A DNA stretch of 64,000 nucleotides from NCBI GenBank assembly GCA_020466095.1, contig CM035807.1, positions 42,357,725 to 42,421,724 on the forward strand, written 5' to 3'. The notes beneath the pieces were generated by a model. The model saw only the letters and a list, made by a program, of their open reading frames with translations, ran no database searches and was not told where the DNA came from. The position numbers and the translations under genes were made by a program. This document shows positions 13,608 through 44,513 of the stretch, piece after piece. The number at the start of each line of letters is the position of its first letter. The stretch's first letter is position 1. This DNA comes from Chlorops oryzae (taxonomy: Eukaryota > Arthropoda > Insecta > Diptera > Chloropidae).

Positions 13608-15198
13608 TTTTTTTTTTTTTTTTATAACTTCAATTTATTATATTTAATCTGTTTAATTCAAACAATAAGTACTACGTATGACTGAATAAATACCGAACTT
13701 GATCGGGGCTACCCAGTGGTAGCCACCACTACAAAAGAAAAATAAGCTCTAAATGCTTATTTTTATTTTTTTAACAATTTAAAGATTGAAAATTGAAAAT
13801 CTGTACGGCAGGTCTGATGTAGAGAAGCGTCTTAATCTGCGGATGTTGTTTGAACCGTCGACCAGTTCAAGCGCAAGAGGATTTGGATGGGCAGCAACAC
13901 GAATGCGATAGTAAGTGCTGATTTGCTGTATATACTCATATACAGCAGAAACGCCGAGGTCACGATGAAGGAGATCGTTGGTTACATATTGGGGAGCGTT
14001 TACAATTAGGCGAAGAGTTTTTGACTGAAATCTCTGTAATATACTTAGATTGGATTTGGCTGAGGTACCCCAAATGGAAATACCATATGTCCATATAGGC
14101 TTAAGTACCGATTTATAAAGGAGGACTTTGTTATCGAGAGATAGCTTTGACTTGGGGTTAAGCAACCAATATAACGACCGAAGCTTAAGCCCTAGTTGCT
14201 TTCGTTTCATAAAGATATGATGGCGCCAGATGAGACGACGATCGAAGTGTATGCCTAAGTATTTGACGTTGTCACATTGAGGAAGTTCTGCGTTGTTCAG
14301 TCTTACTGGAGGACAGTTGCCATGTCGGAGTGTAAACGTAATTTGAACCGATTTACTTTCGTTAGCTCTTATACGCCAGTCGTCAAGTTTTTGCGTAGCT
14401 GTTGCAGGGACTGTACATTTGGACATCACTACAGTATCATCCGCAAACGTTGCAGTGTGCGTATCTGAAGTAAGAGGAAGGTCAGCTGTGAACAAAGTAT
14501 ATAGAGTTGGACCCAATACACTACGCTGTGGAACTCCAGCTTCTATCGGGTATAATTGTGTTTGCTGGTCGTTGACTTTTACCATGAAATGTCTATTTTG
14601 CACATAGGACTTTAGAATCGAAAAATAGGCGTGGGGTAGCATTATTATTAGCTTATAAAACAGGCCAGGGTGCCATACTTTGTCGAATGCTTGTGCAATA
14701 TCAATGAAAGCGGCAGTGCAATATTCTTTTTTTTTCCAAGGCTGTTCTGGCATATTGATAAACTCGATTTACTTGTTCTATTGTAGAGTGTTGTTCTCGG
14801 AATCCAACTTGGTGTGCGGGTACAAGGGAACGTCGTTTAATTACGCGTTTCAATCGCTTAAGGAGCAGTCTTTTAAATACTTTTGACAACACGGGTAGCA
14901 TGCTGATGTGTCTGTAGGACCTTAATTGCTCAGCAGGATTCCCTGGTTTTGATATTAGGATAATCGTGGCCACTTTTCATTGGGAGGGGTAGTGTTCATG
15001 TGTGATAGTTGCATTAAACAATTGATTTATAAATTGAAATCCTTCATCAGGTAGCTCTTTCAGCACTTTGCCAGTTATCAGGTCGTATCCAGGGGCTTTT
15101 CTACCATGAATTTTTTTGTTAATGATGCATTTAACCTCGCGATAGGACGAAGCTGGAATCGGGAGGTCTAACTGGTGCGGAGTGTCGAGGAAGTCCAT
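13608..15198 (-). pseudogene. jockey-type non-LTR element, 3' part (RT)
   Basis: The minus strand encodes the reverse transcriptase of a jockey-clade element. Present are the palm lead-in SKPGNPAEQLRSYRHISMLP, the motif A region AFIDIAQAFDKVWH, motif B EAGVPQRSVLGPTLY and the catalytic FADD at TATFADDTVVMS, followed by the thumb and C-terminus ending near 13779. A T run at 13608-13623 is the poly(A) tail on the minus strand. A frameshift near 14730 and another near 14975 break the frame. The 5' part continues at 32627 beyond LTR element A, which inserted into the region just upstream of the RT fingers. Confidence 0.85.
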
Positions 15199-15711
15199 TG
15201 TTGTGAGGATTTTTCCGAAATCCCTCACTCGCCTATCGGACCGAATTTTCTAAAGGAAACGCTCTTTAGTTTTATAATTTATCATTATTTATTTAACGAT
15301 TATCTACAACTGTTAACTGCAACTTATGTTTAGCAACTGATTTCAACTGATTCTTAGTTTAGAATACAAAAGCTTATATACTAATTATTCTATATATTTA
15401 AACCTAAGTCTGCGCTCTGCAGACGCTGATTTGTTCTTCGGGAACGGTGTCATGGGCCTGCTGACGCATGCTGATCTGTGCAGGTGTGCTTCCGGGTTTG
15501 TTGGTCGTTTTGTTCCCACGAACATTCGATTCTCATATTCGCATAATTCGCATGCTCGGCGATTCTGCGTAAGGTCACCTATGTTGTAAAGTTGCACTTG
15601 GCACGCTTGTATGAAGGTCCAGAATGCCAGCTTGCACTTTTGGCCGTCTGCCGTCGCTAGCGGTATTTCGTAAGCTACAAGATGAGCTGCTCTGCTGTTT
15701 GACTCATAACA
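15199..15711 (-). repeat. 3' LTR of element A
   Basis: This 513-bp LTR begins TGTTGTGAGG and ends CTCATAACA in plus-strand terms. It differs from its partner at 32114-32626 at only three positions, all near its right end. A CAG/CTG-flanked GC-rich block (CTGCTGACGCATGCTGAT) is also found, diverged, at about 55725. The frame open at 15385-15828 crosses the LTR border and is probably not a gene. Confidence 0.95.
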
Positions 15712-15726
15712 TCCCTCCCCCTTTTG
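15712..15726 (-). other. polypurine tract of element A
   Basis: Immediately next to the 3' LTR, the minus strand reads AAAAGGGGGAGGGA. This is the purine run from which plus-strand DNA synthesis is primed in LTR elements. Confidence 0.8.
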
Positions 15727-16150
15727 AAGACGATGCCACGTTTTGGCATTCAAATTAACGGTGGAAGGTAAGTTTGTCATTGCTATTGTAAGGATTGCCG
15801 CAAAAGCCATCTTAGTGTTTTGAGTCATCTGTTATAGGAAGATTGGCTGCTTGTTGGGATCCGACAGGAAAACTATTTATTTGGTCCAAAATTTTAAGTG
15901 GTTTAACTTTCATATTTTTTTGTTGGTGCAACTCTGGAACTGCTCGAACTTCCGACTAACGTTTTGAGTTTTCTTGTTTCTGGTTCTGGTAGGTGATGAC
16001 CTTACGCCATATTGGTTAATTACGAAGCTTGTGGTCAGCATGGTCAGCATCCCATCGATGTCCTCTCCTGCGTCATTCTGCTATAGATTCGATTGAGACA
16101 GTTGGAGTGTGTTTTTATCACTATTTAATTTGATTTTTTTTTTCATACTT

Positions 16151-16186
<36 letters not shown>

Positions 16187-17623
16187 ATGGGTTTCTCATG
16201 TTCAATTTATTTATTATTTTTCTTTCTTTTTTTTTTTTTTTTTTTCATTAAATATTTTCTTTGTTTCAACTGTCTCCCACCTGTAATTTACAAAAATTTG
16301 ACTTACAGATTATAATCTATATTTTAATTTTATAATATAATAATTGTATAATATTCTTAATTATATAATTCAGTTTAAAGCTACTAATTTTTCGATTTTT
16401 CTTACAACTATATACATATATGTTATCGAAATTTTAGTCTTTTACTATTAGTATGATCTATTTAAATTTCATGATTTCGAACATTTTGAATTTTAAATTT
16501 TGTATGTTTTTTCCTCAGAATATTTTTCCATTCAAATATGTACAGTCGAACTTCCGTGTAGTGAACGTCTATACAATGAAGTTCTCCCTACTCTGAAATA
16601 ATTTCAAACGCACAGCTTTTTCGTTCCACTTTCAGTGTACGTGTAAATAATTTCTGTAAAATGAAATTTCTATATAATGAAGTGATTTTCTTGTCCCGTG
16701 CGACTTCATTATAAGGAAGTTCTACTGTATATATATAATATTTTTTTTTTTTTTTTTTTTTTTTAAATAATTTTGAATGATTTTATATATTTTATATTTA
16801 TAATTTTTTGAATAATTCGCTTTTCTTTTCTTTAAACTTTGAAGTGCAACTAGTGGGAAATTACTCCTTTTGTTTTATGTGAAGTGTAATGTCAAATTTT
16901 GTTAATTTAGATACTTGATTTTTTTTTATTTTATTATTTTTTTTTTTTTATATCGCAATTTTTCTCTTTTTAATTTTATTTTTCTCTTTTTTTTTTTTTT
17001 CTTACCAAACACTCTTCCCCTCTTCTTAGTTTGGTATCTAAATTGAACTTAGGAATTTCAACACTTTCAATTGAGTTTCCAAATTTTAGAAGGGAAATTT
17101 AACGTCTGATATCCATCGTTAAGCCTCATTGGTCTTCCTGAAAAGAAAAAGAAAACATGAAATTATTCCCTACCTGTGCTACAACTATTCTCTTGTCCCT
17201 GCCTTTATTTTGGCTGTCCAAATTGAACTTGACAATTTTGAATTTTTGCATAACTGCTTTCGAACTTGACCTATTTCCTTTTGACTGTCTTTTATTGGTT
17301 TGAGTTCAATTATTATTTTCTTATTTTTTCCAATATTGCAATGTCAAGTGCACTATAAAAAAATTGTGTTTGTTCATCAAGATTTAGTTCGCGGCTAGCT
17401 TCTACTATTCAAAAATTAAAAAAAAAATTATTTTGCTTTTATTGTGTCTTCGCTTGTTTTGATATGCGAGCACTTTTGTCTTGAACAGAAAATTGTTAAA
17501 TTTTTTATTTTTTTAAGATATGTAATTGTCGCGTGGTGGAGCTTAATTTCTGGTAGCGCCATTTTGAAATAGGATCGCTTCGAAAATAAGAAAAAGCAAA
17601 GAATGAATTTATTCTATAAATTT
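15727..17623 (-). other. long AT-rich 3' untranslated region of element A
   Basis: Between the PTP stop and the polypurine tract lie about 1.9 kb rich in T runs (for example near 16150, 16230, 16745 and 16990), with no credible ORF on the coding strand. No env gene is visible in the place where errantivirus-type relatives would keep one. A small TA-flanked MITE is inserted at 16543-16727. Confidence 0.7.
16543..16727. mobile_element. 185-bp pogo/mariner-type MITE
   Basis: The ends CAGTCGAACTTCCGTGTA and, inverted, CAGTAGAACTTCCTTATA are flanked by TA at 16541-16542 and 16728-16729. The interior repeats the theme ATACAATGAAG/TATAATGAAG. TA duplication and a CAGT tip fit the Tc1/mariner/pogo group. 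It lies in the 3' UTR of element A. Confidence 0.75.
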
Positions 17624-18480
17624 TCATTTAAGTAGTACTTTAAGGGCCTGGTAACAAAATATGTATTGTGTGGCGTTTGGAATTGCTTGCGCCCTTTGTG
17701 CACGTATTTTGTTTACTATTTCCCGTACCTTGATGTTCTTTTTATTTTCTTTCAAATCTAAGGCGATATTTAAAGCTATAAAAACGCATGTTCTGCATAT
17801 GCCTGCAGCGCAATGAACTATCATCGGCGGCGGATTTGTTATATTAGTAGTTAACCTCTTTTGATTTTCCTTAACTAATCTTATAAATTGCCATAATAAT
17901 TTAGCATTTGGTATGCCTTGATCGACCCAGCACCTAAATTGCCAATGGTAAATTGTTCTAGAAGTTTCTGATTTTTGATCGTATAGTTCTAATTCCGTAC
18001 AAACAAAATTCTTGTTTTCATTTTTATTGAGCGTTTTAACGCGAAATTGGGAAAATATTTTGGTGGAATTTACGTCAGCTTCCAGTATCTAGCACACTCT
18101 CTCGACTTCGTGAGCATAACTATGGTATTACAATTTTGTTCCCATACCATTTGAAATAAGTCTTGTATGGAATTTTCGAGAGGTCCCTGCGTAGCTATAT
18201 ATGACTTCGTCTTTTTGTATCCATCCACAAAACTAGCATGAATATATCCTGTCATGTTCTCGTGTTGTCGTGATATTTTTACACGACTGTGGTCAAAACA
18301 AGGCACGTTCCTATAGCGATTTTTTTCTGAATTTCTTAGAAAATGTTTAAAAGATCCCTTGACTGGAATTCGAATCAATTGTGCATGCTCTTCGGTTAGC
18401 TTGCGATTAATATCTTCTGCCTCTTTCCCTGCTTTTATGTATTGAATGTTCGCTTTTTCCTGATTGACTTTTAACAAATT
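17624..18480 (-). pseudogene. protein tyrosine phosphatase domain fused to Pol
   Basis: A complete classical PTP fold can be followed on the minus strand. In order: the KNRY substrate loop (EKNRYRNVPCFDHSRV, about 18300-18335), YIHASFVDGY, the conserved YIATQGPL, MVWEQNCNTIVMLTK, CARYW, a WPD-like loop WVDQGIP near 17920, the catalytic signature IVHCAAGICRT near 17800 and the Q-loop QYIFCYQAL. The nucleophile Cys, the signature Arg and the general-acid Asp are kept. Two glycines usual around the signature are Cys here, and Pro of WPD is Val. The frame is shared with the integrase tail upstream, so the protein would be a Pol-PTP fusion. An indel near 18072 breaks the frame in this copy. The stop is at 17624. 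Origin, host or viral, is not resolved. Confidence 0.85.
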
Positions 18481-18728
18481 TCTGTGGAAGGATTTTTCTT
18501 TGCCCTTGATTAAAATTCTAGCATTTACAGAAGTGGGGAAGTGATACAACTCTATAAGGTCCCTCCCAAATAGGCGAAAATTTATTCTTTCTGGTTTGGT
18601 TTTTCAGCCAGACCTTATGTCCTACCTTAAATTCTCTAATTTTCGATCCCTTATCATAGTATATTTTCGAATTTTGCTTTCCTTTTTCTTGATTAAGTCG
18701 AACTAATTCATGCGTTCTTTGAATCTGG
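18481..18728 (-). pseudogene. integrase C-terminus of element A
   Basis: After the B insertion the integrase of element A resumes with RTHELVRLNQEKGKQNSKIY and VGHKVWLKNQ. Then comes the GPY/F-type module WEGPYRV, continued after a one-base frame change near 18560 by ARILIKGKEKSFHRNLLKVN. That last frame stays open into the PTP domain with no stop or start between them. This part would bind DNA non-specifically and help position the integrase. Confidence 0.8.
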
Positions 18729-19274
18729 TGTAGTGTATCCTTCGCGTAGAAGAATTAATATTTTTATTTTATAGTTTTTATTTCTTTATATCCTAAAGGT
18801 TTTTATTTTGTTATGTCCCGCTATTGCTGAGCGGCAGGACTCGCAAATCTATTTGGCGGCTATCGCCCAATATCTCTATATTTATACGGCGGAGATACGC
18901 CAAAGGAGTCAGCGACTAGCGCTTAATTCACCTTTTTATATTATCCGGCGAAAGGTGCGCCAAATCGAGAATGGATAAGCAAAGGGTTTCGCATGTAAAT
19001 CCAATCTGAAGTTCCAACTGAACTTCAAGCTTTATTTATATCAAAAATATGTTAAGTAAGCATAAATGAATTACAATTGGAAAATATAGAATCTTATGAA
19101 TTAGCTTGTGAGGTATGCTGACAAAACACTTTCCCACGATTCGACGACGCTGCCTGCAAAATATGTTGCTCATGCAATGAGTGCAGCTTGCAAAGAATTT
19201 GGTCATATGAAACCATTTATGTCGTGAATGAAGTGGAAAAATGAGTTTGTGCGTTCGTGTGTATACATACTACA
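18729..19274 (-). repeat. 3' LTR of element B
   Basis: It begins TGTAGTGTATCC and ends ATACATACTACA. It is nearly identical to 24995-25541. The next bases inward, CCCTCACCCTCT at 19275-19286, are the polypurine tract when read on the minus strand. Confidence 0.95.
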
Positions 19275-19528
19275 CCCTCACCCTCTAGAGAAAAAAAAAA
19301 AATTGCTGTTTTTTTTTTGGTTTTTTTTTTGTATATACATACGAAGTAGAAAATTATTTGTGTTAAGCATCTTAGAATATAGTATTGCCTTAAAATCTAA
19401 ATTTCGCCTTAAAAGTTTAATTATCGTGTAAAATTTTACTTATCGCATGATTCTAACTAATGCTTAATATATAGTATCTATAGTTTGTGTATTTTCTTAC
19501 TCACATAGTTTTAAATTGTTGTTATGCA

Positions 19529-20628
19529 CTAGTTTCTTTTATTCTTATACAATATTACTGAATTAACACCTTGTCGTTCTAATATCTTAAAAGGACCTTC
19601 ATAAGGACTGTCTAATTTCTTACCTGCATAATTTCTTAAGAAAACTAGGCTACCTATCTTAAATTCAATAGGATTTGAAATCTTGTCATAACATTCTTTA
19701 TTTTTAATTTTTGAGTTAATCAAATACTTTCTGGCATTCTCATGTGCGTTTTGTAATCTCACTTTGAGCTCATTTTGAAAACGATCAAAATTGTAAATAG
19801 GTTCGTTACTGTAAATCTTTGTTGGCAAGCTTGGTAATCTTCCAAATATTAATTCAAAGGGGGTGTATTTTGTGCTCGTATGTGGAGTGGTATTATAAGA
19901 GAACGTATAGTAAGGTATATTCTTATCCCATTCTGCGTCTTCAGTGCAACATAAAAGATATTCGTTGAAAACTCTATGATTTCTTTCTATTCCACCTAAA
20001 GATTCGTGGTGATAGGTGTTGAGGTTTTTTGTTCAATGTTTAATAAACTACAAATTTCTGAAATAGTTTGATTTACAAATTCTTTTCCCATATCTGTTTT
20101 CATTGTTTTTAAATGACCATATTTTAAAATGAATTTTTCTACTATCGTTTTTGCTACTTCTAATGATTCTTTAGATGTCATAGGGAAAGCTTCGACGTAT
20201 TTGGTTAAGTCGCATTGTAGAGTTAAAATATATCTGAAATTATTTGATGGGCGTAAGGGTCCTATTGTGTCAATTGATACTACTTCAAAAGGAATAGAAG
20301 GGGTTTCAGTGGTTATCATCTTCTCTTTAGTATGTACGGTAATTTTATTTTTCTTGCAAATTTCGCAATTTTGTATGAATTTCTTTACCATTTTATTCAT
20401 ACCTTTCCAGACATAGCGTTGTTTCAACTTAGCTATTGTCCTGTTTACACCGGTGTGACCTCCGAGTAAAGATAAATGATTTTCTTTAATGAAACGTAAC
20501 TGATCAGGTTCGTTATTAATTGATTCGGGGGGTTTGAATAAAATAATTGTTATGGGAGTGCACAATCCCTTATTCATGTGTTTCTGCAATGTCTCTTCAT
20601 ATAAAATTTTTAATTCTTGTTGACTCAT
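19529..20628 (-). pseudogene. integrase of element B
   Basis: The N-terminal zinc-binding part has HLSLLGGHTG and CEICKKNK. The catalytic core shows the first Asp in VVSIDTIGPL and the second in MKTDMGKEFVN. A one-base deletion near 20012 then shifts the frame, so the catalytic Glu (in GGIERNHR) lies in the following frame. The C-terminal part at 19529-19828 carries the chromatin- or DNA-binding tail with PYEGPFKIL. The enzyme would insert the element's cDNA into the genome, but this copy is broken at the core. Confidence 0.85.
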
Positions 20629-20639
20629 AGATTAAAATA

Positions 20640-22031
20640 CTAGGTCCTTCTTGAAAGAGCTAGCTTACTTATGCCATTGCTTTGTAGTACTGGAATCAGC
20701 TTCTCCAAGACCTGGCTTGTGCAGTATGGTTTATCGCTTGATTCAATCAAAACAATGTTTTTAATTATGGCAAAAGTCTGCAGATTTTTACGCTTTGTAC
20801 ATTTATTCTCCCCTTGTGTTTGCACAAATTTAAGAATTGGCAAATTTCGTACATCCGAAATAGATATGCATTCCCACATGTGCGGATAGCTAATCCTCTT
20901 TGTGGGGGTAGGTGTTCTATTTGGACGGGTCACATTTTTATTTGTACTTCTAGTTATTGCTGCAATGCATGGTATCAAAGTTTTTAATTCATTAGAATTT
21001 ACTGGAGTTCTAGAAAGTGCATCAGCATTAGTGTTTAATTTTCCTTGTTTATAAATAATTTCAAAATCATATTCCATGAGATCCATTCGAATTCTGGTGA
21101 GTTTTGAAGAGGGGTTTTTGTGTTTAAACAATGAAACTAATGGTCTATGATCTGTTACTATTTTGAAAAATTTACCATATAGGTAGGGTCTAAAATGATT
21201 TATTGCCCAATGAATGGCTAAAAGTTCTTTTTCTATTATCGGTTTATTCAGTTCATGTTTGTTTAAAGATCTACTGGCATATGCAATAGGAAGATCGGAT
21301 CCTATGGTACCTTGAGAAAGTACTGAACCAAGGGCGTAGTTTGAGGCGTCTGTGGTTAGAATGAATTCTTTTTGAAGATTTGGATATTGTAAGATTGGTG
21401 GGTTAATGAGTGAGTTTTTAAGTATTTGAAATGATTTTTCACATTCAGGGCTCCAATTAAAAACTACGTTCTTTTTGAGTAAATTATTCAGGGGGTTTGC
21501 CATTTCTGCAAAGTTTTTTACGAATTTTCTATAATAATTGCAAAATGCAACGAATCTTCTTACTTCATTTGAATTTGTAGGTCTTGGAAAGTCTTTTACT
21601 ACCTTGCATTTTTCTGGGTCAGCTGTTACGCCAAGGTCTGTTATTTTATGACCTAAAAATATTACTTCGTTTTTAAAAAAGTTACATTTTGATGCATTTA
21701 ACTGTAAATTGTATTTTTGTAATCTTTGGAATACTTGTTGAAGATTTGAATTATGCTCTGATATTGTTTTGCCAAAAACTATAATGTCGTCTATATATAT
21801 AAAGCATATATTGTCTAAGCCTGAGAGTGCTATTGTCAACATTCTTTGAAAACTGTTTGAAGCTAATTTTAATCCAAATGGAACGGTTTTAAAATGATAA
21901 TGTCCGTTGTTTGTTGAAAAAGCTGTTAAAGGTCTTGATTGTTTACTGAGCGGAATTTGATGGAATGAATTTGTCATGTCTAATGTGGAGAAATATTTAG
22001 CACCTTCTAATTTATCGAGTACATCCTCCAA
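20640..22031 (-). CDS. reverse transcriptase and RNase H of element B
   Basis: This frame covers most of the RT domain, from the DVLDKLEGAKYFSTLDMTNS motif through the catalytic YIDDIIVFG, the thumb, and the RNase H domain (TTDASNYALGSVLSQG, IIEKELLAIHWAI, VTDHRPL). It is typical of Ty3/gypsy Pol. The first RT motifs are in the preceding frame at 22084-23955. The break between them is one extra A in an A run near 22098. A further frame break near 20640 separates it from the integrase. Confidence 0.9.
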   Translation of the reverse strand: MEDVLDKLEGAKYFSTLDMTNSFHQIPLSKQSRPLTAFSTNNGHYHFKTVPFGLKLASNSFQRMLTIALSGLDNICFIYIDDIIVFGKTISEHNSNLQQVFQRLQKYNLQLNASKCNFFKNEVIFLGHKITDLGVTADPEKCKVVKDFPRPTNSNEVRRFVAFCNYYRKFVKNFAEMANPLNNLLKKNVVFNWSPECEKSFQILKNSLINPPILQYPNLQKEFILTTDASNYALGSVLSQGTIGSDLPIAYASRSLNKHELNKPIIEKELLAIHWAINHFRPYLYGKFFKIVTDHRPLVSLFKHKNPSSKLTRIRMDLMEYDFEIIYKQGKLNTNADALSRTPVNSNELKTLIPCIAAITRSTNKNVTRPNRTPTPTKRISYPHMWECISISDVRNLPILKFVQTQGENKCTKRKNLQTFAIIKNIVLIESSDKPYCTSQVLEKLIPVLQSNGISKLALSRRT

Positions 22032-22083
22032 TCTTGAAATGGGAAATTTGTCATCGACTAGTTTTTTATTTAGCTGGCGAAAA

Positions 22084-23143
22084 TCAACTACTAATCGCCA
22101 TTTTTTTTTCTTGTCCTGAGTCTTTTTTTGGTACTTTTAGTAAAGGTGAATTGTAGGGGCTAGTAGAATGTTCAATAATGCCTTTGTTTAGCAGTTCTTG
22201 AACCTGTTTATTGATTTCATTTAGTTGGCTATGGGGAAGGCGATAATTTTTAATATAAATAGGACTGTTGTCTGTTAGTACTAGCTTTTGTTCATAAAAG
22301 TTATTAACTGATATTTCTTCATTGTTTAAATAAAATAGATTTTGAAATTTATTGCAAAGAGCCGTTATTGATTTGCTAGTGGAATAGTCTAAATTTTGTA
22401 AATTCAAAAGCGTTTTCAACTTTAACCATCGCAAGTTTAAATCGTTGGTGGACAAATATTTTTGTTTCCTTATATTAGTGAGAAGAACTTCTTTGGGAAT
22501 TAAATCAAAAATGTGGTCGATGCCTCTATGTGTAAAAGAAAAGGTAAAATTTTCATAGTTAATCTTTGCTCTGAACTTTGCAAAAAAATCTCTTCCTAAA
22601 ATTCCACTTGACCTTATAGGAAATGAATCATCTACAACACTGAATTTGTGTCTTAAAACACTATCCTCTATATTTATAGGCAAAATACATGTCCCTAAAG
22701 TCACAATGTCTTTCTTTGAGATTCCTGAAATTGCACATGAGTCGCTACTGTCAATGCATATATTACACAAATGTTCATATTTAATTAATGATATATCTGC
22801 CCCTGTATCTATTAAAAATGAAAGAATGTTATTATTACATTTAATATAAGCATAATTACTGTGATCAAAATTTACAGTGAAATGAAAAATTTTCATATAA
22901 TTCCCCGAGTGACCTAATCTGCTACCTGTTCGGTATCGGGGGTACTCAAGTTTCCCTGGTTGCTCTGTGCCATTTACAAAAAATGCATTATGCCTTACAT
23001 TATTTTGGCTTTGAGAGTTATTCGAATTTGAATTCGCACGAGCATTGTTGTTGTTGTGCCTTTGATTTTGGAAATTGTTGTTGTTGTTGTATTGTGCACT
23101 TTGCTGATATGCGAGACGATCGCGGGTGCCTTGTCGGTTACCG

Positions 23144-23180
<37 letters not shown>

Positions 23181-23955
23181 AGCGATTGTTGAAGCGGTTG
23201 TTGTAATTGTTGTTGTTGTTTCCTCTGCGATCGTATTGCTGCTGTCTGTTGTATGTTTGGTTGTTTTGATGACTTGAGTTTGTCGAATGATTTTGTTGTG
23301 TCTGTCTGTTGTTATCATGTCTCCTATTACAATTTTGCCTCTGCTGATTACCCTTATGCTGGTTTTTTCCGTTGCGCTGTCTATACATCATGATACGAGC
23401 TTCTTCCGTATGATCTGATTCTTGCGCTATTTGGAGAGCCTCATTAAAAGTGGTGACTCTACTTGCTGCAATTGTTTGTGCTATGTTAGCATTTGTTATG
23501 CCTCGTTTTAGCACATTAAGGGCTATCACATCATTTGATTTGATTATAGCTGCCTTTTCTGCTGGTGTTTGCAGCGTTGAAATTTGTATTGAATTTAATT
23601 CCGAAATTAAACCTTCGATGGTTTCAGCGAATTTAGATATTGGTTTTCGGCCTTGTGTTGCTCTGGATAATTCATCTAATACAGTGTTTGCAGTTTTTCT
23701 GGGCTTGAATATTGCCTTTAAATTTTGTATTAGATTTTCTATGCCAGTTGTGCCAAGTAATTCGAGTTTTGTTTTTACTTTATCTGGTATTTTGGTGTTG
23801 AAGACTAATGCAAAATAAGTGGGTTTTTTACTATCTGGAATTTCTGCGTTAAATAATTTGATTAAGTTGATAAATTTTTGAGCATCTTCTAATCTGCCTG
23901 AAAATTCTGGTATGGCCTTAGTGTACTGTATCACGTTGAAGTTTGATTCTGTCAT
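22084..23955 (-). CDS. Gag-protease-RT start of element B
   Basis: The frame starts MTESNFNVIQYTKAIPEF and has an alpha-helical capsid-like region to about residue 200. It is followed by a low-complexity Gln/Asn/Arg-rich nucleocapsid with long Asn runs at roughly residues 215-320, and no CCHC knuckle in it. The protease active site LIDTGADISLI follows, then GILGRDFF, and the first RT motifs (HSTSPYNSPLLKVPKKDSG) end the frame. Gag and Pol share one frame here. Its start overlaps the end of the upstream ORF by four bases (ATGA), which suggests termination-reinitiation. Confidence 0.85.
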
Positions 23956-24287
23956 TCTTGTTTCTTTTTATTTTTCTGGTATAATGATAAAAAGGACGAA
24001 ACGCACGTTGCAATGACTTTAAATGTTATTAATTTTCTATGGTCTTCCAATTTGCTGTTCAAAATCGTGAGGATAGCAAAATATAATTCTCTTGCTGTTT
24101 TTGTGGCTGCTGTTTGAAAATTTTCCTCCGCGTCTTTAATAGCGTCGATCAGCCCGTTGTACAATTTTTCATTTTCTTCCTTTTTACTTATGAGAGTTTT
24201 CTTTGTGTATTTTCTCGTCGGGGTCTTTTTGAGATTGGACAAGTTATGTTTTAGACGCGCAAGTATTTCTTGCGTCAATGCTTCCAT
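23952..24287 (-). CDS. small Gag-type ORF of element B
   Basis: This 111-residue, Lys-rich, helical protein carries PTRKYTKKTLISKKEENEKL, similar in style to the matrix-like N-terminal Gag module of mdg1/412 elements. A hydrophobic stretch lies near the C-terminus (VIATCVSSFLSLY). It starts 6 bases after the stop of the upstream ORF and overlaps the Gag start by ATGA. The role is inferred from position. Confidence 0.65.
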   Translation of the reverse strand: MEALTQEILARLKHNLSNLKKTPTRKYTKKTLISKKEENEKLYNGLIDAIKDAEENFQTAATKTARELYFAILTILNSKLEDHRKLITFKVIATCVSSFLSLYQKNKKKQE

Positions 24288-24293
24288 ATATGA

Positions 24294-24536
24294 TTAGTTG
24301 GATCTGACGTCAGTAAGGCATGCCACAGATCTAGCTGCTTTAAGAGCTTCTTGCCTTTTATTCTTTTTGTTTATTCTATAAATTTTAAGGGTTAAATTCA
24401 ATATGCAAATGATTAGAATTGCCCATAAAATGACTTCGTGTTGATCCAGGACTTCTGAATGATAATTTTGATTGTTGATTATCTGAACCTGCGGGTCTCC
24501 CGATTGTGTTGTTGGCTTAGAGTTTGTGGTTCCCAT
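24294..24536 (-). CDS. small membrane-anchored ORF of element B
   Basis: This 80-residue protein begins MGTTNS, which fits the N-myristoylation rule (Gly2, Ser6). One membrane span follows (VILWAILIICILNLTLKIY), then a basic tail. Similar short proteins with an MG start and a single span occur just upstream of gag in mdg1/412/blood-group elements. Its function there is not settled as far as I know. It may help particles reach membranes. Confidence 0.65.
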   Translation of the reverse strand: MGTTNSKPTTQSGDPQVQIINNQNYHSEVLDQHEVILWAILIICILNLTLKIYRINKKNKRQEALKAARSVACLTDVRSN

Positions 24537-24994
24537 GGTTTTTGGAAATGAAATGTATTTGTATTTCTCAAATGTGGATTTTTGTCTTCTAAGTATTTTC
24601 CACGAAGCATATATTTCGGTAAGCGTCTTCAGTCGTTTATGACACAGAGCAATTACAATATATTGGGAAACATATATAGATATATATATTTTTTTTTTTT
24701 TTTTTTTTTTGGGTTTTAAATATAGTCTTTTTTAATGAAAATTTTTGTATGTGATTCTCATCTCAATTTGTCTGAGCGTATAAAAAAAATTCCATGTATT
24801 TGTTCAAAGCTTTAAAATTGAGTGGAGATAAACAAAATTAATTTATGGCAAGGCTGCTAGTGCTATGGTTAAAATAAAAATTTTTTTTTTTTGGAAATTT
24901 CTGCTTAGGCAAAGGAATTGTCGATTTTTTTTTTTTTTTTTTTTTTTTAAAGGAGAGGATCAGAAGGATCCAAATTTGGTCGGCAGGATCGCCA
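24537..24994 (-). other. 5' leader and primer-binding site of element B
   Basis: The leader is AT-rich with T runs near 24690 and 24925. Directly against the 5' LTR, the minus strand reads TGGCGATCCTGCCGAC (24979-24994), which starts with the TGG expected of a tRNA 3'-end primer site. The TGGCGA start resembles the tRNA-Arg site known for 412, but the match must be checked against host tRNAs. Confidence 0.65.
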
Positions 24995-25541
24995 TGTAGT
25001 GTATCCTTCGCGTAGAAGAATTAATATTTTTATTTTATAGTTTTTATTTCTTTATATCCTAAAGGTTTTTATTTTGTTATGTCCCGCTATTGCTGAGCGG
25101 CAGGACTCGCAAATCTATTTGGCGGCTAGCGCCCAATATCTCTATATTTATACGGCGGAGATACGCCAAAGGAGTCAGCGACTAGCGCTTAATTCACCTT
25201 TTTATATTTATCCGGCGAAAGGTGCGCCAAATCGAGAATGGATAAGCAAAGGGTTTCGCATGTAAATCCAATCTGAAGTTCCAACTGAACTTCAAGCTTT
25301 ATTTATATCAAAAATATGTTAAGTAAGCATAAATGAATTACAATTGGAAAATATAGAATCTTATGAATTAGCTTGTGAGGTATGCTGACAAAACACTTTC
25401 CCACGATTCGACGACGCTGCCTGCAAAATATGTTGCTCATGCAATGAGTGCAGCTTGCAAAGAATTTGGTCATATGAAACCATTTATGTCGTGAATGAAG
25501 TGGAAAAATGAGTTTGTGCGTTCGTGTGTATACATACTACA
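24995..25541 (-). repeat. 5' LTR of element B
   Basis: A 547-bp LTR, one base longer than its partner at 18729-19274. The last 23 codons of the open frame ending at 25470 are read from this LTR and do not belong to element A. Confidence 0.95.
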
Positions 25542-27650
25542 CTGGTACTTTAATATTTTTGAATAATCATCAATATTGTATAGAGGAGCGGGCTTCCTTT
25601 TTAGATTAACAGGTACATCAAAATCAAAACCGAAAAGTGTTTTGCTAAGCGTTTGTTTCGTAGTGCTGTGTACAGTATTATTGTGTACATGCATGGCATG
25701 ATGAAGCCAATCATCCCAATTTGTACCGTCTTCTTTCGCAAAAGTTCTTAAAAATTCGGCTAATGGTCTATGGCTTCTTTCTAAAGCACCATTGGCTTGC
25801 GGATGATATGGAGAAGTTTCTATTTTCTTAATTCCCATTAGCTTGCATACTTCCTTAAAAAGTTTTGAAGTGAAGTTTGTGCCATTGTCAGTGACAAGAA
25901 TTCGTGGAATATTGAATTTTGAAATTACTTCGTTAAAGAACGCTTTTGCTACTGTCGACGATTCTGCATCGGGAATGCCTGTACATATGAAAAATTTTGA
26001 AAAATCATCTAAAAATGTAAGAATATATTTATTACCGCTTGAAGTGACTGGTAGGGGACCCACCATGTCCATATATATCTTATCAAAAGGACGTTGGGAA
26101 ATTTTTGTGAGAACCATCGGCATTTTCTCGACTTTTGAACTTTTATTTTTCTGACAGAGTTCACATGTTTTCACGTAATCTTTTATCTGTATTTGCATTC
26201 CTTGCCACTTAAATTGTTTTCTAATTCGCAAAAACGTCTTCATTGTCCCTTTATGACCTCCTATGGGTGAATCATGAAATGTTTTAAGGACCTTTACAAT
26301 CTCCTTTGGGTCAGTTAAAACTTGTGCCATGTCTTCTTCAATATTTTCATCAGTTATTTCATCAGTGTTTTCTTTAGCCTGAGCTCTTGTTACTACAGAT
26401 ATTGCGCTGTCGATATGTGGAATTCTACTCAAAGCGTCAGCATTTTGATTATTTTTTCCCGGCTTATAAAAAATTTCAAAATCGTACTCTAAAAGTTTAA
26501 GGCGAAAACGACCTAGTCTCGAATCTTGTTCCTTTAAATTGGCTATACCTTTTAATGGCTTATGATCGGTGTATATTTTGAAAGGTCTCCACAATAAATA
26601 GGTCCTAAAATTTTTCACAGCCCAAACTATTGCCAAAAATTCTTTCTCAATTGTAGAATATCGTTTCTCAGTTTCACTTAACGCTCTGCTGGCAAAATAA
26701 ATAGGCAAATCTTCCCCTGGTTCTCCTTGCGAGAGAACAGCTCCTAAGGCTTCATTACAAGCGTCTGTTGTTAGAACAAAAGTTTTCGAAAAATCTGGAT
26801 ATTGAAGTAAAGGAGGTGAGGTTACCGCAGCTTTAAGCTGTTCCATGGCCTTCTGACAATCATTTTTCCATTCAAACTTAACGTTTTTTCTTAATAATTT
26901 GTTTAGTGGAACTGAAATTTTTGCCGCATTTGGTTTAAATTTGCGATAATAATTGATTAATCCAAGGAAAGCTTGTAACTCTTTTACATTTCTGGGTGGT
27001 GATATTTTTTGTACACTTTCTACCTTTAGTGGATCTGGCAGCACGCCTGATTCCGAACATTTATGCCCTAAATATATAACTTCTTTTTTAAGAAATTGAC
27101 ATTTCTCTGTTTGAAGTTTTAAACTGTTATGTCTTAAGACTTCAAAAACCTTACATAATCTTTCTTCATGCTCTTCTTTATTCCTAGCATAAATAACGAT
27201 ATCATCAAGATAAACAAAACAATCAATTCCCTGCAAACCAGTAAGAATGCTATTCATTATGCGTTGAAAGGTTGCAGGTGCTCCCGTGAGCCCAAAAGGC
27301 ATTCTGGTAAATTCAAAATGTCCCATTCCCGTGCTAAATACTGTCTTCTCCTTATCTTTTTCTTCGATAAGCACTTGATGGTATCCGCTGGCTAAATCTA
27401 AAGTTGAAAAATACCTACTGAAACCCAACTGATCGAGAATTTCATCTATTCTCGGTATCGGAAAAACTTGTTTAACGGTAATATCGTTCAACTTTCGGAA
27501 ATCTACCACAAGTCGCCATTTCTTTTTCCCATCGGCACCGGCCTTTTTCGGTACTAACAATATCGGAGAATTCCAAGGTGACTTGCTTGGAGAAATAATG
27601 CCATCTTTAAGCATTTTGTCAACCTGTGAGGTTATTTCTGTTTTATGCAC
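25542..27650 (-). CDS. RT, RNase H and integrase core of element A
   Basis: A long open Pol segment of the gypsy group. RT motifs include KKKWRLVVDFRKLN, YFSTLDLASGYHQV, FGLTGAPATFQRIMN and the catalytic FVYLDDIVIYA. RNase H has TTDACNEALGAVLSQG, YSTIEKEFLAI and YTDHKPL. The integrase has the zinc-binding FHDSPIGGHKG and CELCQKNK. All three catalytic acids are present, in YMDMVGPL, LVTDNGTNFTS and NGALERSHRPL. The frame is cut at 25541 by element B, and the integrase tail resumes at 18728. The RT-integrase block itself has no internal stop, unlike Gag. Confidence 0.9.
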
Positions 27651-28072
27651 TTCTGGTAGTCTATATTGCCTAATATTACTGGTGGCTGCCCTGGCTCTGT
27701 TGCAATTTCGGGTTTAAGAACTGTCGTATATGAAAGCTTATCCTCACTCAAATGAAAAATATCAGAATATTCTCTGAATACGCTCTTTATTGATTTTAAT
27801 TCTTCTTCGTTTAAATTATTATCTAAACGTACTGTTTCCATAATCAATTGAAAACGATCATTCATTTTCTCATCCTTTTTGACAAAATTTATCCCTGTTT
27901 TTCCTAACTCCTCATAATCCCTAAGAAGAGTGTAATTTAGCTCCTTTAGCTGTCCAAATTTTACATTTTTTCTACTTGCATTCAGAACTGGTAAAAATCC
28001 CTTTCCCTTTTTGATTCTTGTTATTACATTTCCAACGTATACTCCTTGCATAATTTCTTGCTTACGTACCAC
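27632..28072 (-). CDS. protease-RT linker of element A
   Basis: This frame links the protease to the RT. Its C-terminal half resembles the conserved lead-in before gypsy-group RT (LNEEELKSIKSVFREYSDIF, LSEDKLSYTTVLKPEI). One-base frame changes separate it from the RT frame near 27655 and from the protease frame near 28120. Confidence 0.75.
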   Translation of the reverse strand: MVRKQEIMQGVYVGNVITRIKKGKGFLPVLNASRKNVKFGQLKELNYTLLRDYEELGKTGINFVKKDEKMNDRFQLIMETVRLDNNLNEEELKSIKSVFREYSDIFHLSEDKLSYTTVLKPEIATEPGQPPVILGNIDYQKCIKQK

Positions 28073-28120
28073 TATATCTCCTGATTCAATATTAACCTTA
28101 ATTGGAATTATTTTTGAAGT

Positions 28121-28806
28121 TCAAGCGTTTATCGTAATTGACTCAACTACGCATATTCTTCTAGTCTCTTGCTCTGAACAAAGTGGTAATCTTGTGATTT
28201 CCTTGCTATTTGCGAAAAATGAAATCGTCTTATTAACTCCATTCGTAACCGAACGGGTCCACAGTTCATCTCTACCCAAAAGTCCATCTGCTGGTACTTT
28301 GCTACCAAATGGAAGTACGTGCATATTAAAATTTAATGCTTTGTTTTCTTGGTGAGATATCCTTACAGATCCCTCTGTACTAATACTACCACCAAATGCT
28401 CCACCTAATTGCTTAACCTCTGACCTGTCAACTTCAACTTCTTCTTTTAAGACTTCAGATTTGAGCAAACTAGTGTCTGCCCCTGTATCAATAAGCAGAG
28501 TTAATTTATCATTTTTAGCTTGTCCACACGGAAATACTATAAATGCATCATCTGATCGACATCCCTCATCTATGGTTAAAGAATTTGTTGAACTGTCAAA
28601 GTTGTTTAGTTTTAGGTCTTTGAGCAGCCTTTTCTTCTTAATTGACTCTGACTTACTCAATTTTCTATTTAAATGCAATTCCATTGTTTTTCTTTCTAAA
28701 ACAACTAAACCCTTTGAAAGCGACTCTTGTAGACTAGTGCACAAAATTATCAACATACTTAATAGTATGATCCATCCCTTGGTGAAAAATTGCTTTACAC
28801 ATGAAT
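28121..28806 (-). CDS. retroviral-type aspartic protease of element A
   Basis: The active-site loop is LTLLIDTGADTSLLKSE, followed later by the second conserved region DGLLGRDELWT. This is the usual pattern of the pepsin-like retroviral protease that cleaves the polyprotein. The open frame extends to 28915, but its first 36 or so codons are read from a MITE inserted at about 28807-29096. A hydrophobic stretch (GWIILLSMLIILCTS) precedes the protease. Confidence 0.8.
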
Positions 28807-29096
28807 CACTACCCAGTCGGCATTTTAAATTGCTACAATATTTCAGCAGTATTGCTTCTGCAACATTGCATATTGCAGTAATGTTGCTGCAATATGTGAA
28901 TGTCCGCCTTTTCATTATACATTGTATATGTATTAAATATGCAATATTGCAGCAACATTTTATTATAAATATTGAAAATGCAAAGCTGCTGCAACATTAC
29001 AGCAATGTTGCACTTTCATATTACAACTTTTACATTGATATAATATTACTGCAACATTATTCTTGCAGAAGCAATATAACATGCCGTGTGGGTAGA
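28807..29096. mobile_element. MITE inserted in gag-pol of element A
   Basis: The ends TACCCAGTCGGCAT and, inverted, TACCCACACGGCAT bound about 290 bp made of many variants of GCTGCAATATTGC and CAGCAACATT. The flanking coding sequence of element A is interrupted here. The target duplication could not be fixed. Confidence 0.65.
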
Positions 29097-30054: not shown

Positions 30055-31131
30055 CTATTCGTGACTTGGATTCTTTCGACGAAAATCTACTAACTGACCA
30101 ATGGAATCGTTTTCCCTTCCGGCCAACATTTGCTCAAGTGATCGGTCTCGCAATCCTTTAATAAAGGCATTTACCCCAAGATCCTTAAAAAAGACCTCCA
30201 TATTATCTAATCCATAGGTTTCTTTTACGAATTCATTCGCTTCTTTTAATAATTCCTCTATCCTGCTACCAAAAAGGACCACTGGCTCACTTGGGCCTTG
30301 CCTAATGTTATCTAAGTCTGCCCTTATTTGGTCTAGAGTCCTTGCTTTAGCATAATTTTGTTTTATAAATTCGCAAAATTCGTCTATTGATGAAAATTTT
30401 TTCTCCCCAACCCGCTTATGCGCCTTTCCAAACAATCTCAGCTTTATGCATTCTATTGCGAGCTCTGTGTCCCCAGGTGAGACTTCTCTCTTCACCAATT
30501 GACACCCTTGTATAAATTTATCTACTTCTATTTTAAGCTCTGGGCAAGATGTTCCTGAAAAGATTGGCACTAGCATGTCAACTACCTTTTTCATTTCACT
30601 GACTAATGTTCTCATTGATGACACGTGTATGTGGCTCGGACGATTATATTCTCTGACTGCGATGGGCTCATTTACTTTTGGAATGTTACCGAGGTGTGAA
30701 ACTCTCTCTTGTGGACTGTTATCTCTCAACCTATTGCCATTTCTTTGGTTGGCACCAAATTGAAAGAAATGTTCTAAATTAGCTCTCGCGGCTGAAAAAT
30801 TTGAATCTGATTTGGTATGTTTGTTCTGCATCATATCAGTTTTTAGTCTTAACTGATTTGATTGACCTGCTGAGGGTGGAGGCGGGGGTGGCGGTATTTG
30901 TGTAGGTGTTGGCTGTGGAGTCAACGAAGGACTTAATGAATGTTCCCGTGAATATTCTATTTGACTTGGAGTCAGTTTTGAGATTTCGATACCAGCTTCT
31001 GATAATTCTTTTGATAATGGTGTTAAGTTACCGGTCGCTTCGTTATGTACTGTTAATTCGTTATTGTTAGACATTTGAGGACGACTAATGTTATTATTTT
31101 CGTGGTTGGCACAACGTAATCTCTCCTTCAA
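30055..31131 (-). CDS. Gag capsid region of element A
   Basis: The N-terminal part is Pro-rich (PTPTQIPPPPPPPSAG). The C-terminal 180 residues form a helical Gag capsid-like domain, with segments LAIECIKLRLFGKAHKRVG, IDEFCEFIKQNYAK and ELLKEANEFVKETY. The first knuckle follows after a frame change near 30055. The frame is continuous with the coiled-coil ORF upstream except for one TAA at 31165-31167. Confidence 0.8.
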   Translation of the reverse strand: MKERLRCANHENNNISRPQMSNNNELTVHNEATGNLTPLSKELSEAGIEISKLTPSQIEYSREHSLSPSLTPQPTPTQIPPPPPPPSAGQSNQLRLKTDMMQNKHTKSDSNFSAARANLEHFFQFGANQRNGNRLRDNSPQERVSHLGNIPKVNEPIAVREYNRPSHIHVSSMRTLVSEMKKVVDMLVPIFSGTSCPELKIEVDKFIQGCQLVKREVSPGDTELAIECIKLRLFGKAHKRVGEKKFSSIDEFCEFIKQNYAKARTLDQIRADLDNIRQGPSEPVVLFGSRIEELLKEANEFVKETYGLDNMEVFFKDLGVNAFIKGLRDRSLEQMLAGRENDSIGQLVDFRRKNPSHE

Positions 31132-31164
31132 ATGCTCTATTTCTGCTTTTTGTTCAACGATCGT

Positions 31165-31590
31165 TTATCTATTTTTTTCAAATAGGTTTAACTGTCCTGC
31201 GCTAAAATTTTCTTTTAATAAAAGTTCCCTTAGTCTGTCGTTTTCTAGTTTTTGTTCTTCCAAGGATGTATCTGAACCCGCTAACGCGTCCTTTAATTTT
31301 TTGTTCTGTGATTTTAATAATTTATTGCTAAGCTGTAACTTTTCTAATTCTTTTTCGAAAGCTTTACTCTTTTTATCACTTGCGCTTTCTCTTATATGTT
31401 CAAGTACTATGTCAAATTTCTCTTCTTGAGTTTTACCTTCTATTTCACTGCGAACTAAATTTAAAAATGATCTTTTCTTATTTACTGACTCTAGGACTTC
31501 CCACAATTGTCTAAAATAACTAGCAGTTAAACGTTCATAAGTGAATACTTCTTGCTTTAAATTTTCTATAATTGCGCTATTTCCTTCCAT
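31165..31590 (-). CDS. coiled-coil N-terminus of Gag, element A
   Basis: This 141-residue frame starts MEGNSAIIENLKQEV and is mostly predicted coiled coil (for example FEKELEKLQLSNKLLKSQNK). It is in frame with the capsid ORF and separated from it by a single TAA, so the original Gag was probably one protein. Confidence 0.7.
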   Translation of the reverse strand: MEGNSAIIENLKQEVFTYERLTASYFRQLWEVLESVNKKRSFLNLVRSEIEGKTQEEKFDIVLEHIRESASDKKSKAFEKELEKLQLSNKLLKSQNKKLKDALAGSDTSLEEQKLENDRLRELLLKENFSAGQLNLFEKNR

Positions 31591-32113: not shown

Positions 32114-32626
32114 TGTTGTGAGGATTTTTCCGAAATCCCTCACTCGCCTATCGGACCGAATTTTCTAAAGGAAACGCTCTTTAGTTTTATAATTTATCAT
32201 TATTTATTTAACGATTATCTACAACTGTTAACTGCAACTTATGTTTAGCAACTGATTTCAACTGATTCTTAGTTTAGAATACAAAAGCTTATATACTAAT
32301 TATTCTATATATTTAAACCTAAGTCTGCGCTCTGCAGACGCTGATTTGTTCTTCGGGAACGGTGTCATGGGCCTGCTGACGCATGCTGATCTGTGCAGGT
32401 GTGCTTCCGGGTTTGTTGGTCGTTTTGTTCCCACGAACATTCGATTCTCATATTCGCATAATTCGCATGCTCGGCGATTCTGCGTAAGGTCACCTATGTT
32501 GTAAAGTTGCACTTGGCACGCTTGTATGAAGGTCCAAAATGCCAGCTTGCATTTTTGGCCGTCTGCCGTCGCTAGCGGTATTTCGTAAGCTACAAGATGA
32601 GCTGCTCTGCTGTTTGGCTCATAACA
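32114..32626 (-). repeat. 5' LTR of element A
   Basis: A 513-bp LTR equal to 15199-15711 except at three positions. It is followed by CCAT at 32627-32630, the target duplication. Confidence 0.95.
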
Positions 32627-33240
32627 CCATAACTTCAGCGTCTTTGCTTGGATTTTTGGTCGAGAACGGCTGAAATACTGTTTTCAGATGTGACGCGAAT
32701 GCAGCAGCCTTCTCAGCATTGGATTTAGCCCACTGCCCGTCCGGCCTTTTGATGGCAGGTATATGTATGGTAGGATCCTTGAACTTGCGAGTTGCCTTCC
32801 ATAGGGAGAAGTCGGTATTTACAAATGGTGTAAGATTAGAAAGGTTCTTTTCCATGCTTTCATTTTTTCTTTCAATAAGAGTTTCTTTAAGCTTCCTGGT
32901 CGCTGCATTCAAACGTATTTTATCCTCCGAATATCTTGTTATTTGCCATATACGGCGAAGTTTACGTTTCAGAATTATTAGACTTTTTATGCTGCGATCA
33001 AGGTGTTCTGTTTTATTATCTGTAACTTTCGGTGTTGATGTCCAAGCTGCGTTTTGTAAAATGCTGTTAAAATGTTCAACGGCATCCTCAACCTCCTGAA
33101 TAGTTTTGAGTGAAAAGTTGGCTGAGAGATTTTTGCTAACTATGCTGCGGAATAACTGCCAATCAGTGCTTTTGTTGTGCTTATTGTTTTTCTTCCATTT
33201 TTTGTGGTATCGTTTTCTCTGTGTACATTTTTGAAGCTAT
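32627..33240 (-). pseudogene. jockey-type non-LTR element, 5' remnant
   Basis: This continues the jockey copy cut by element A. It encodes the linker between endonuclease and RT, with STDWQLFRSIV, NSILQNAAWTSTPK and LIILKRKLRRIWQITRYSED, then SLWKATRKFKDPTIHIPAI. The endonuclease is absent, so the copy was 5'-truncated, a usual fate of jockey insertions. The exact left limit of the element near 33,200-33,240 is uncertain. Confidence 0.75.
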
Positions 33241-44504: not shown

Positions 44505-44513
44505 GATCAGACA

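What the first reader, a model, noticed from the sequence alone, without database searches (positions are those of the whole stretch)
17624..18728. LTR retrotransposon with a protein tyrosine phosphatase fused to Pol
The frame that ends the integrase of element A (ARILIKGKEKSFHRNLLKVN) continues without a stop into a PTP domain with the KNRY loop, YIATQGP, WVD loop, HCX5R and Q-loop. Both lie between the LTRs, in the position where related elements may have env. The sequence shows the fusion directly. That a PTP is not a normal part of gypsy-group elements is established family knowledge. Capture of a host or polydnavirus-type PTP is inference. A secreted or cytoplasmic phosphatase could alter host signalling in favour of the element, much as acute retroviruses carry captured signalling genes.
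Basis: partly seen in the sequence, partly recalled or inferred. Interest (0 to 1): 0.93.

Follow-up and report, generated by a model that had tools for sequence, protein, structure and literature searches.

The report
Fly retrotransposon carrying a tyrosine phosphatase
A group of jumping genes in a fly genome has taken up a host-type enzyme that removes phosphate from proteins and makes it as the tail of its own copying and inserting machinery; why it does so is not known.

Summary
The window has two nested LTR elements. The outer one (15199-32626, minus strand, target duplication ATGG) carries RT-RNaseH-integrase and then a classical PTP. A second LTR element (18729-25541) lies inside its integrase. 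The window copy is broken: frame changes before and within the PTP, and an altered catalytic loop.

Related copies settle the biology. In the same fly genome Pol and PTP form one open frame of about 1500-1850 aa in 31 of 150 listed PTP matches. They span at least seven subfamilies; some are bounded by near-identical LTRs. Catalytic Cys, Arg and Asp are kept in 26 of 26 loci (25 distinct copies, picked from the best-scoring matches) and in three fused proteins from other sources. PTP dN/dS is about 0.2. The PTP looks PTPN9-like, but is only 35-44% identical to the host's own PTPN9. Close relatives in the same genome lack it, so it is a facultative module. Sibling subfamilies also carry Env-like and Ulp1-type protease ORFs.

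Ten searches of one open-access library showed no published account. Most likely role (inferred): an accessory phosphatase delivered with Pol that acts on host phosphotyrosine targets.

The parts
32114..32626 (-). 5' LTR of the outer element B (starts TGTTATGAG, ends CTCACAACA)
   Evidence: 513 bp, 3 mismatches to 15199-15711
15199..15711 (-). 3' LTR of the outer element B; its partner is 95.3-96.1% identical to the LTR downstream of eight sibling copies with open Pol-PTP frames
32627..32630 (-). target-site duplication ATGG (5' side), matching 15195-15198 on the 3' side
30055..31590 (-). Gag region of B (ORFs 31165-31590 and 30055-31131; weak Retrotrans_gag PF03732, below the curated cut-off)
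28121..28915 (-). aspartic protease of B (PF00077, above the curated cut-off)
25542..27650 (-). RT, RNase H, integrase zinc-binding and core domains of B, cut near the integrase C-terminus by element A
24995..25541 (-). 5' LTR of the nested element A (547 bp; 1 mismatch and 1 gap to its partner); target duplication CCAG at 25542-25545 and 18725-18728
18729..19274 (-). 3' LTR of the nested element A; no PTP match among A's ORFs scanned
18550..18728 (-). C-terminal part of the integrase of B, resuming after element A (frame 1)
18070..18549 (-). open stretch with the end of the integrase tail and the first part of the PTP (Pfam match at 18079-18333: KNRY, YIATQGP)
   Evidence: PF00102 E 4.9e-32; PDB PTP matches
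17627..18088 (-). second part of the PTP in another frame (WVD, HCAAGICR, Q-loop region); stop at 17624-17626
   Evidence: PF00102 E 2.2e-32
17792..17815 (-). catalytic loop HCX5R of this copy (HCAAGICR; open siblings of its subfamily have HCAAGIGR)

Best explanation
Shown: the window holds a broken copy of a Ty3/gypsy-type LTR element whose Pol polyprotein carries a classical, PTPN9-like protein tyrosine phosphatase as its last domain (protease-RT-RNaseH-integrase-PTP). The fusion is shared by many subfamilies, kept under purifying selection, and its presence has changed several times among close relatives. Inferred: the PTP is made in fixed proportion to integrase as part of Gag-Pol and enters the particle with it. 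It then acts as a slow phosphatase (or phosphotyrosine trap) on host proteins near the particle or preintegration complex, as an optional aid to host interaction and not as part of core replication. I put the fusion and its retention by selection at about 0.95, and the catalytic host-directed role at about 0.5.
For: One open frame RT-RH-IN-PTP in six of six ORFs scanned by Pfam, one per subfamily, with a protease match in five of them. 31 of 150 listed PTP matches (151 reported) have an open frame of at least 1500 aa with no stop inside the match (my count). LTR pairs 99.7-100% identical around four copies, three with full 4-bp target duplications. Catalytic Cys, Arg and WxD Asp kept in 26 of 26 element loci (25 distinct copies, L004 and L026 overlap) and in 3 of 3 outside fused proteins. 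PTP dN/dS about 0.2, integrase 0.06-0.09, linker 0.5-2. PTP-less sibling subfamilies in the same genome suggest that the core machinery does without it. The PTP diverges far faster than integrase between subfamilies (e.g. L010/L017 dN 0.37 vs 0.10), as expected at a host interface.
Against: No activity, expression or protein data. The PTP1B Gln262 equivalent is lost in 24 of 26 loci and in 3 of 3 outside fused proteins, and the window's own subfamily has WAD for WPD and Ala after the catalytic Cys, so turnover may be poor. The loci were picked from the best-scoring PTP matches and mostly for long open frames, which favours conserved residues; the dN/dS pairs are not independent and a few are high (0.85 in L024/L027 on nine differences; up to 0.49 with L025). 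Where the PTP acts, and whether it is cleaved from integrase, is unknown.
Confidence: 0.6

Rival explanations
1. The PTP is kept as a binding or structural module, not as an enzyme: it holds Pol/integrase to a phosphotyrosine-bearing host protein or to the particle, as a chromodomain at the end of integrase tethers chromoviruses to chromatin.
For: C-terminal position on integrase; Gln262 equivalent lost almost throughout; altered P-loop and WPD loop in the window's subfamily. The baculovirus PTP is needed as a virion protein without its activity (PMC3320614, abstract and outline seen).
Against: Catalytic Cys, Arg and Asp are kept in all 26 loci compared and in the 3 outside proteins; a pure binding domain would be expected to lose some of them. 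The loci were chosen from high-scoring matches.
Confidence: 0.3
2. Passenger DNA: a host cDNA was trapped by chance and is carried without function.
For: It is absent from sibling subfamilies (5 of 8 checked loci lack it), and dN/dS is weaker than for integrase.
Against: dN/dS about 0.2 within and between subfamilies, and retention in one frame across at least seven subfamilies and in metagenomic relatives.
Confidence: 0.06
3. The PTP came from a bracovirus (polydnavirus) and not directly from an insect PTPN9 gene.
For: A bracovirus/Cotesia PTP pair falls next to six element PTPs in one tree (84/70, unstarred, on a branch of about 2). The bracovirus PTP P0252 also lacks the Gln262 equivalent (Met). 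Bracovirus PTPs are mostly single-exon (PMC2646287, passage), like the element PTPs.
Against: In the larger tree it does not group with them. Among 40 proteins scored per domain, fly PTPN9 scores higher (Bactrocera 310) than the bracovirus domain (273), and the fold ranks human PTPN9 entries 1-11.
Confidence: 0.07
4. Assembly joint or chance neighbour of a host PTP gene.
For: The window copy's frame is broken at the joint.
Against: The same joint occurs in frame in many loci and in three database proteins from other sources, between LTRs with target duplications.
Confidence: 0.01

Closest known systems
Ty3/gypsy LTR retroelements of insects, errantivirus-like
   Same: LTRs, 4-bp target duplication, RT-RH-IN order; Baculo_F-type Env ORF in several sibling subfamilies
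   Different: PTP fused to the end of Pol; Ulp1-type protease ORF in some subfamilies; no Env found in the ten copies of the window's subfamily examined
Orchid Ty3/gypsy elements with an m6A RNA demethylase (PMC9289625; introduction and passages seen)
   Same: A host-derived enzyme acquired by a gypsy element and kept through subfamily radiation
   Different: There a separate ORF in giant plant elements; here a domain fused to Pol in a fly, of another enzyme class
Chromoviruses (chromodomain at the end of integrase; position recalled)
   Same: Extra domain C-terminal to integrase in the Pol frame
   Different: No chromodomain found in six ORFs scanned; a phosphatase instead
Planarian Burro elements (PMC6431247, passages seen)
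   Same: Gypsy-like element with several acquired domains thought to meddle with host pathways
   Different: Different domains; the words phosphatase and Ulp1 do not occur in that text
PTPN9 / PTP-MEG2
   Same: Closest PTP type by domain score, tree neighbourhood and fold
   Different: No CRAL-TRIO part in the elements; Gln262 equivalent mostly lost; about 40% identity
Baculovirus ptp (PMC3320614, abstract and outline)
   Same: An insect parasite carrying a captured PTP
   Different: Large DNA virus and a separate gene; that it belongs to another PTP class is my recollection

Membership tests
Ty3/gypsy LTR retrotransposon | Direct LTRs with TG..CA ends and a target-site duplication | tested here: met
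   Window B: 513-bp LTRs, ATGG; L012, L017, L024 likewise
Ty3/gypsy LTR retrotransposon | Pol order PR-RT-RH-IN | tested here: met
   RT-RH-IN in six of six ORFs; PR by PF00077 or PF13650 in 5 of 6, above the curated cut-off in 2
Errantivirus-like (with Env) | Env-type ORF after pol | tested here: inconclusive
   Met in L010, L014, L019 by Pfam and in L022, L023, L026 by tblastn. No Env or Ulp1 hit in window B or the nine other loci of its subfamily examined
Classical PTP | Cys and Arg of HCX5R, general-acid Asp of the WPD loop, Tyr of the pTyr loop | tested here: met
   Cys, Arg, Asp in 26 of 26 loci; Tyr in 24 of 26, Phe in L024 and L027
Classical PTP | Q-loop Gln equivalent to PTP1B Gln262 | tested here: not met
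   Gln only in L019 and L022, 2 of 26 loci; lost in 3 of 3 outside fused proteins; kept in 4 of 4 PTPN9 rows
PTPN9 subfamily | Catalytic domain groups with PTPN9 | tested here: inconclusive
   Receptor PTPs split off as a starred group, but element PTPs are not placed inside PTPN9 with support
PTPN9 subfamily | N-terminal CRAL-TRIO (Sec14) domain | tested here: not met
   No such Pfam match in six Pol-PTP ORFs
Bracovirus PTP | Supported grouping with bracovirus PTPs | tested here: inconclusive
   84/70 in one tree, absent in the other
Chromovirus | Chromodomain at the end of integrase | tested here: not met
   None in six ORFs

The most novel reading that the evidence does not exclude
This fly retroelement lineage carries a kit of enzymes that erase host protein modifications: a Pol-tethered tyrosine phosphatase and, in sibling subfamilies, an Ulp1-type (SUMO-protease-like) enzyme, beside an Env. 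Together they could work as counter-defence against SUMO-dependent and phosphorylation-dependent silencing or sensing of the element. They would be swapped and lost as modules in an arms race, with the PTP working as a slow or trapping phosphatase because its Gln262 equivalent is gone.
Probability: 0.2. Interest if true: 0.95.

Novelty: new variant of a known kind. Interest (0 to 1): 0.83.

Why it matters
Extra enzymes in LTR retrotransposons are held to be rare (PMC9289625, abstract), and each one points to a host process the element may need to influence. A phosphatase made as part of Pol, kept under selection across many subfamilies yet absent from close relatives in the same genome, gives a natural with/without comparison. 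With Ulp1-type and Env ORFs in siblings, it suggests that insect retroelements carry accessory enzymes against host regulation, as exogenous retroviruses carry accessory genes. It also warns genome annotators: such genomes can show well over a hundred spurious 'PTP genes'.

Tried and rejected
A protein search with the PTP part of the L009 ORF was swamped by two-domain receptor PTPs, so I searched integrase plus the start of the PTP instead and then an alignment of PTP domains.

A single PTP origin: the nine-row test including long branches rejected it (p-AU 0.022). With long rows removed and a tenth fused protein added it was not rejected (0.40). I leave this open.

On the first integrase tree PTP presence needed 2 changes; on the RT tree 3, of which starred branches force 2. 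Adding PTP-less siblings from the same genome raised this to 4 (starred branches force 2), and a single PTP+ clade was rejected (p-AU 0.003). One search, the same tree with one row mis-cut (L046), is discarded.

I first suspected the PTP lay outside the LTRs, because element A's LTR abuts it; the outer LTR pair disproved that. Counts of PTP-bearing and PTP-less copies rest on the best-scored candidates only (150 of 596, 143 of 5365). Paper search read its first term without the underscore and was useless.

Full report
WHAT IS IN THE WINDOW. Three levels of nesting, all read on the minus strand. A non-LTR (jockey-like, my label) element around 13.8-15.2 kb and 32.6-33.3 kb is split by LTR element B. 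B has LTRs 32114-32626 and 15199-15711: 513 bp, 3 mismatches, TG..CA ends, ATGG target duplication, a TGGCGCAGCCGG primer-site-like stretch after the 5' LTR and an AAAAGGGGGAGGG purine tract before the 3' LTR. B is split in its integrase by LTR element A: 18729-25541, LTRs of 547 and 546 bp with one mismatch and one gap, target duplication CCAG. After A, B's integrase tail resumes at 18728 and leads into PTP sequence. Pfam PF00102 matches the two halves at E 4.9e-32 and 2.2e-32. In this copy the halves and the integrase tail are in frames that change twice, so the copy is broken. Its catalytic loop (HCAAGICR) has a Cys not seen in the 26 other loci compared. No Env-like or Ulp1-like remnant was found between the PTP and B's 3' LTR (tblastn).

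THE FAMILY IN THE SAME GENOME. The own genome (442 Mb, 1044 contigs) gave 151 PTP matches, with 150 of 596 candidates scored and 150 rows listed. By my count 31 of these 150 have an open frame of at least 1500 aa and no stop inside the match; a few of the 150 are host PTP genes (L001 and L002 look so). I fetched 20 loci, chosen mainly for long frames and for spread of scores. In 18 of 20 the frame holding the PTP is 1513-1849 aa long, in two it is shorter (L026 822, L027 1065 aa). Six frames, one per subfamily, were scanned: RT, RNase H, integrase and PTP in one frame in 6 of 6, with a weak protease match (PF00077 or PF13650) in 5 of 6, above the cut-off in 2. At least seven subfamilies differ in their PTP (41-49% identity to the L009 PTP): represented by L009, L010, L012, L014, L017, L019, L024. 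The window copy belongs with L012: the same LTR at 95.3-96.1% downstream of L011, L012, L013, L015, L016, L020, L021, L028, and a partial match (99%, 290 bp) at L025, whose PTP end is cut. LTR pairs around fetched copies: L012 99.8% over 503 aligned bp (target duplication GGGG), L017 100% over 844 bp (CGTC), L024 99.7% over 754 bp (GGTC), L009 100% over 527 bp (3' end off the locus). Of the seven tried, L019 gave only 38 bp and L010 and L014 none, probably because their 3' ends lie off the loci. In these copies the PTP thus lies inside the element, and the insertions are recent.

SELECTION AND CATALYTIC RESIDUES. Nei-Gojobori estimates over 20 open copies (190 pairs): in 31 pairs with RT dS 0.02-0.3, mean dN/dS is 0.23 for the PTP, 0.06 for integrase, 0.08 for RT-RNaseH and 2.0 for the linker. 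In 13 closer pairs the values are 0.28, 0.09, 0.30 and 0.46. The L010/L017, L010/L018 and L010/L023 pairs, with PTP dS 1.6-1.8, give 0.21-0.24. Weaker cases are L024/L027 (0.85 on nine differences) and pairs with L025 (up to 0.49). 145 pairs with RT dS of 1 or more, or saturated, were not interpreted. Pairs share branches, so these are not independent tests, and the copies were picked for open frames. Catalytic Cys, Arg and the WxD Asp are present in 26 of 26 element loci (L003-L028; L004 and L026 are one copy), in P0121, P0123 and P0267, and in the window's second piece. These loci come from the best-scoring matches, so conservation is favoured by the choice. The Gln262 equivalent is lost in 24 of 26 loci, in all three outside proteins and in the bracovirus row P0252, while 4 of 4 PTPN9 rows keep it. 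The L012 subfamily has WAD and HCAAGIGRTC. That Gln262 loss slows phosphoenzyme hydrolysis in PTP1B is recalled; PDB titles seen use D181A/Q262A/C215A forms for peptide complexes.

OTHER SOURCES. A search with residues 940-1340 of the L009 frame returned two fused proteins, P0121 (1622 aa, 54%) and P0123 (1789 aa, 50%), both with PF00665 and PF00102, from JGI contigs of about 7 kb. The closest integrase, P0122 (73% over 70% of the query), ends just after the integrase tail and has no PTP. P0267 (362 aa, ENA) is an integrase tail plus PTP. Only 120 of 4712 hits were listed, so more may exist. Fold: AlphaFold model of P0267 (mean pLDDT 81.7). PTPN9/PTP-MEG2 entries take Foldseek ranks 1-11, with the caution that the alignment supplied was mostly PTPN9-like.

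ORIGIN. Scored per domain against a profile of seven element PTPs, among 40 chosen proteins the fusion fragment P0267 scores 323, fly PTPN9 294-310, the bracovirus domain 273 and receptor PTP domains at most 259. Bactrocera PTPN9 is 42% identical over 91%. Trees split receptor PTPs off as a starred group but do not resolve whether all element PTPs are one clade or sit within PTPN9 (see Tried and rejected). The host's own PTPN9 (L039, found) has apparent introns within the PTP domain, while the element PTPs are uninterrupted. This fits capture through a spliced RNA, but bracovirus PTPs are mostly single-exon as well. Three joined exons of host PTPN9 (221 aa) are 90% identical to Bactrocera and join it in the tree (96/89), so the source is a higher fly, close to tephritids among the species sampled. 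Element PTPs are only 35-44% identical to it, no more than the host's Lar-type domain is (40%), so the capture is old or came from elsewhere, and identity alone does not prove the PTPN9 link.

A FACULTATIVE MODULE. An integrase query found 5365 candidates, 143 scored. Of eight loci picked for open frames of 1302-1484 aa, five (L040, L041, L042, L044, L045) end just after the integrase tail with no PTP match in the rest of the 2.4-kb stretch (about 1.5 kb), and three (L043, L046, L047) have PTP sequence. L042 has the start of an Env-like ORF further on. On the integrase tree PTP presence needs 4 changes, and one PTP+ clade is rejected (p-AU 0.003; 12 rows with, 15 without). A PTP-less group is sister to the window's subfamily (92/86, unstarred). 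In L010/L017, RT dS is 0.27 but integrase dS 2.3, so segments appear to be exchanged between subfamilies. Loss and recombination are both plausible.

FURTHER GENES IN SIBLINGS. Downstream of the PTP stop, Pfam finds Baculo_F-type Env ORFs in L010, L014, L019 (E 6e-7 to 7e-9) and Peptidase_C48 (Ulp1) ORFs in L009, L014 (cut), L017, L019 (E 2e-7 to 2e-15). By tblastn, Env or Ulp1 matches occur in 11 of 20 downstream regions, and none in window B or nine loci of its subfamily. For L009 and L017 the Ulp1 ORF lies before the mapped 3' LTR.

HOW IT MAY WORK. Shown: an in-frame domain of Pol, selected, with catalytic residues kept. Inferred: made with Pol, packaged with it, acting on phosphotyrosine targets of the host. 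Its fast divergence and patchy presence fit a host-facing accessory factor better than a core replication role. A non-catalytic tether is the main rival.

LITERATURE. Ten searches of the open-access PMC library showed no account of a PTP in an LTR retrotransposon; most hits were judged by title and abstract only, and subscription papers and repeat databases were not searched. Seen in part: PMC9289625 (introduction and passages), PMC6431247 (passages), PMC11952523 (outline and passages), PMC3320614 (abstract and outline), PMC2646287 (passages), PMC9962485 (one passage, on a SUMO protease gene as a piRNA target), and passages of PMC5704228, PMC3573978 and PMC8549517, which treat viral PTPs and retroelements separately. 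That SUMO is needed for piRNA-guided silencing in flies is recalled.

Noticed in passing
L009 6962-7849 (+), L017 1741-2436 (-), L019 944-1795 (-), L014 9519-9899 (+, cut): Ulp1-type (Peptidase_C48) ORFs downstream of the PTP in sibling LTR elements, a second possible modification-removing enzyme.
   Followed up: partly
L010 7885-9396 (+), L014 7642-9168 (+), L019 2069-3601 (-): Env-like Baculo_F ORFs in the same elements, so some subfamilies look retrovirus-like.
   Followed up: partly
L010 versus L017: RT nearly shared (dS 0.27) but integrase and PTP strongly diverged (dS about 2): exchange of segments between subfamilies.
   Followed up: no
window 2831-4927: Large palindrome: inverted arms of 334, 323 and 176 bp, 99-100% complementary.
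   Followed up: no
window 40788-54799: Head-to-tail duplication of a block of about 7.1 kb with Helitron-like ORFs (label by eye), 94-100% identical in the repeat pieces listed.
   Followed up: no
window 5709-6401 and 60097-61042: Arrays of a 127-bp repeat near both ends of the window, about 54 kb apart.
   Followed up: no
window 18729-25541: The nested element A is itself a young LTR element (one mismatch and one gap between LTRs); no PTP match in its three ORFs scanned.
   Followed up: partly
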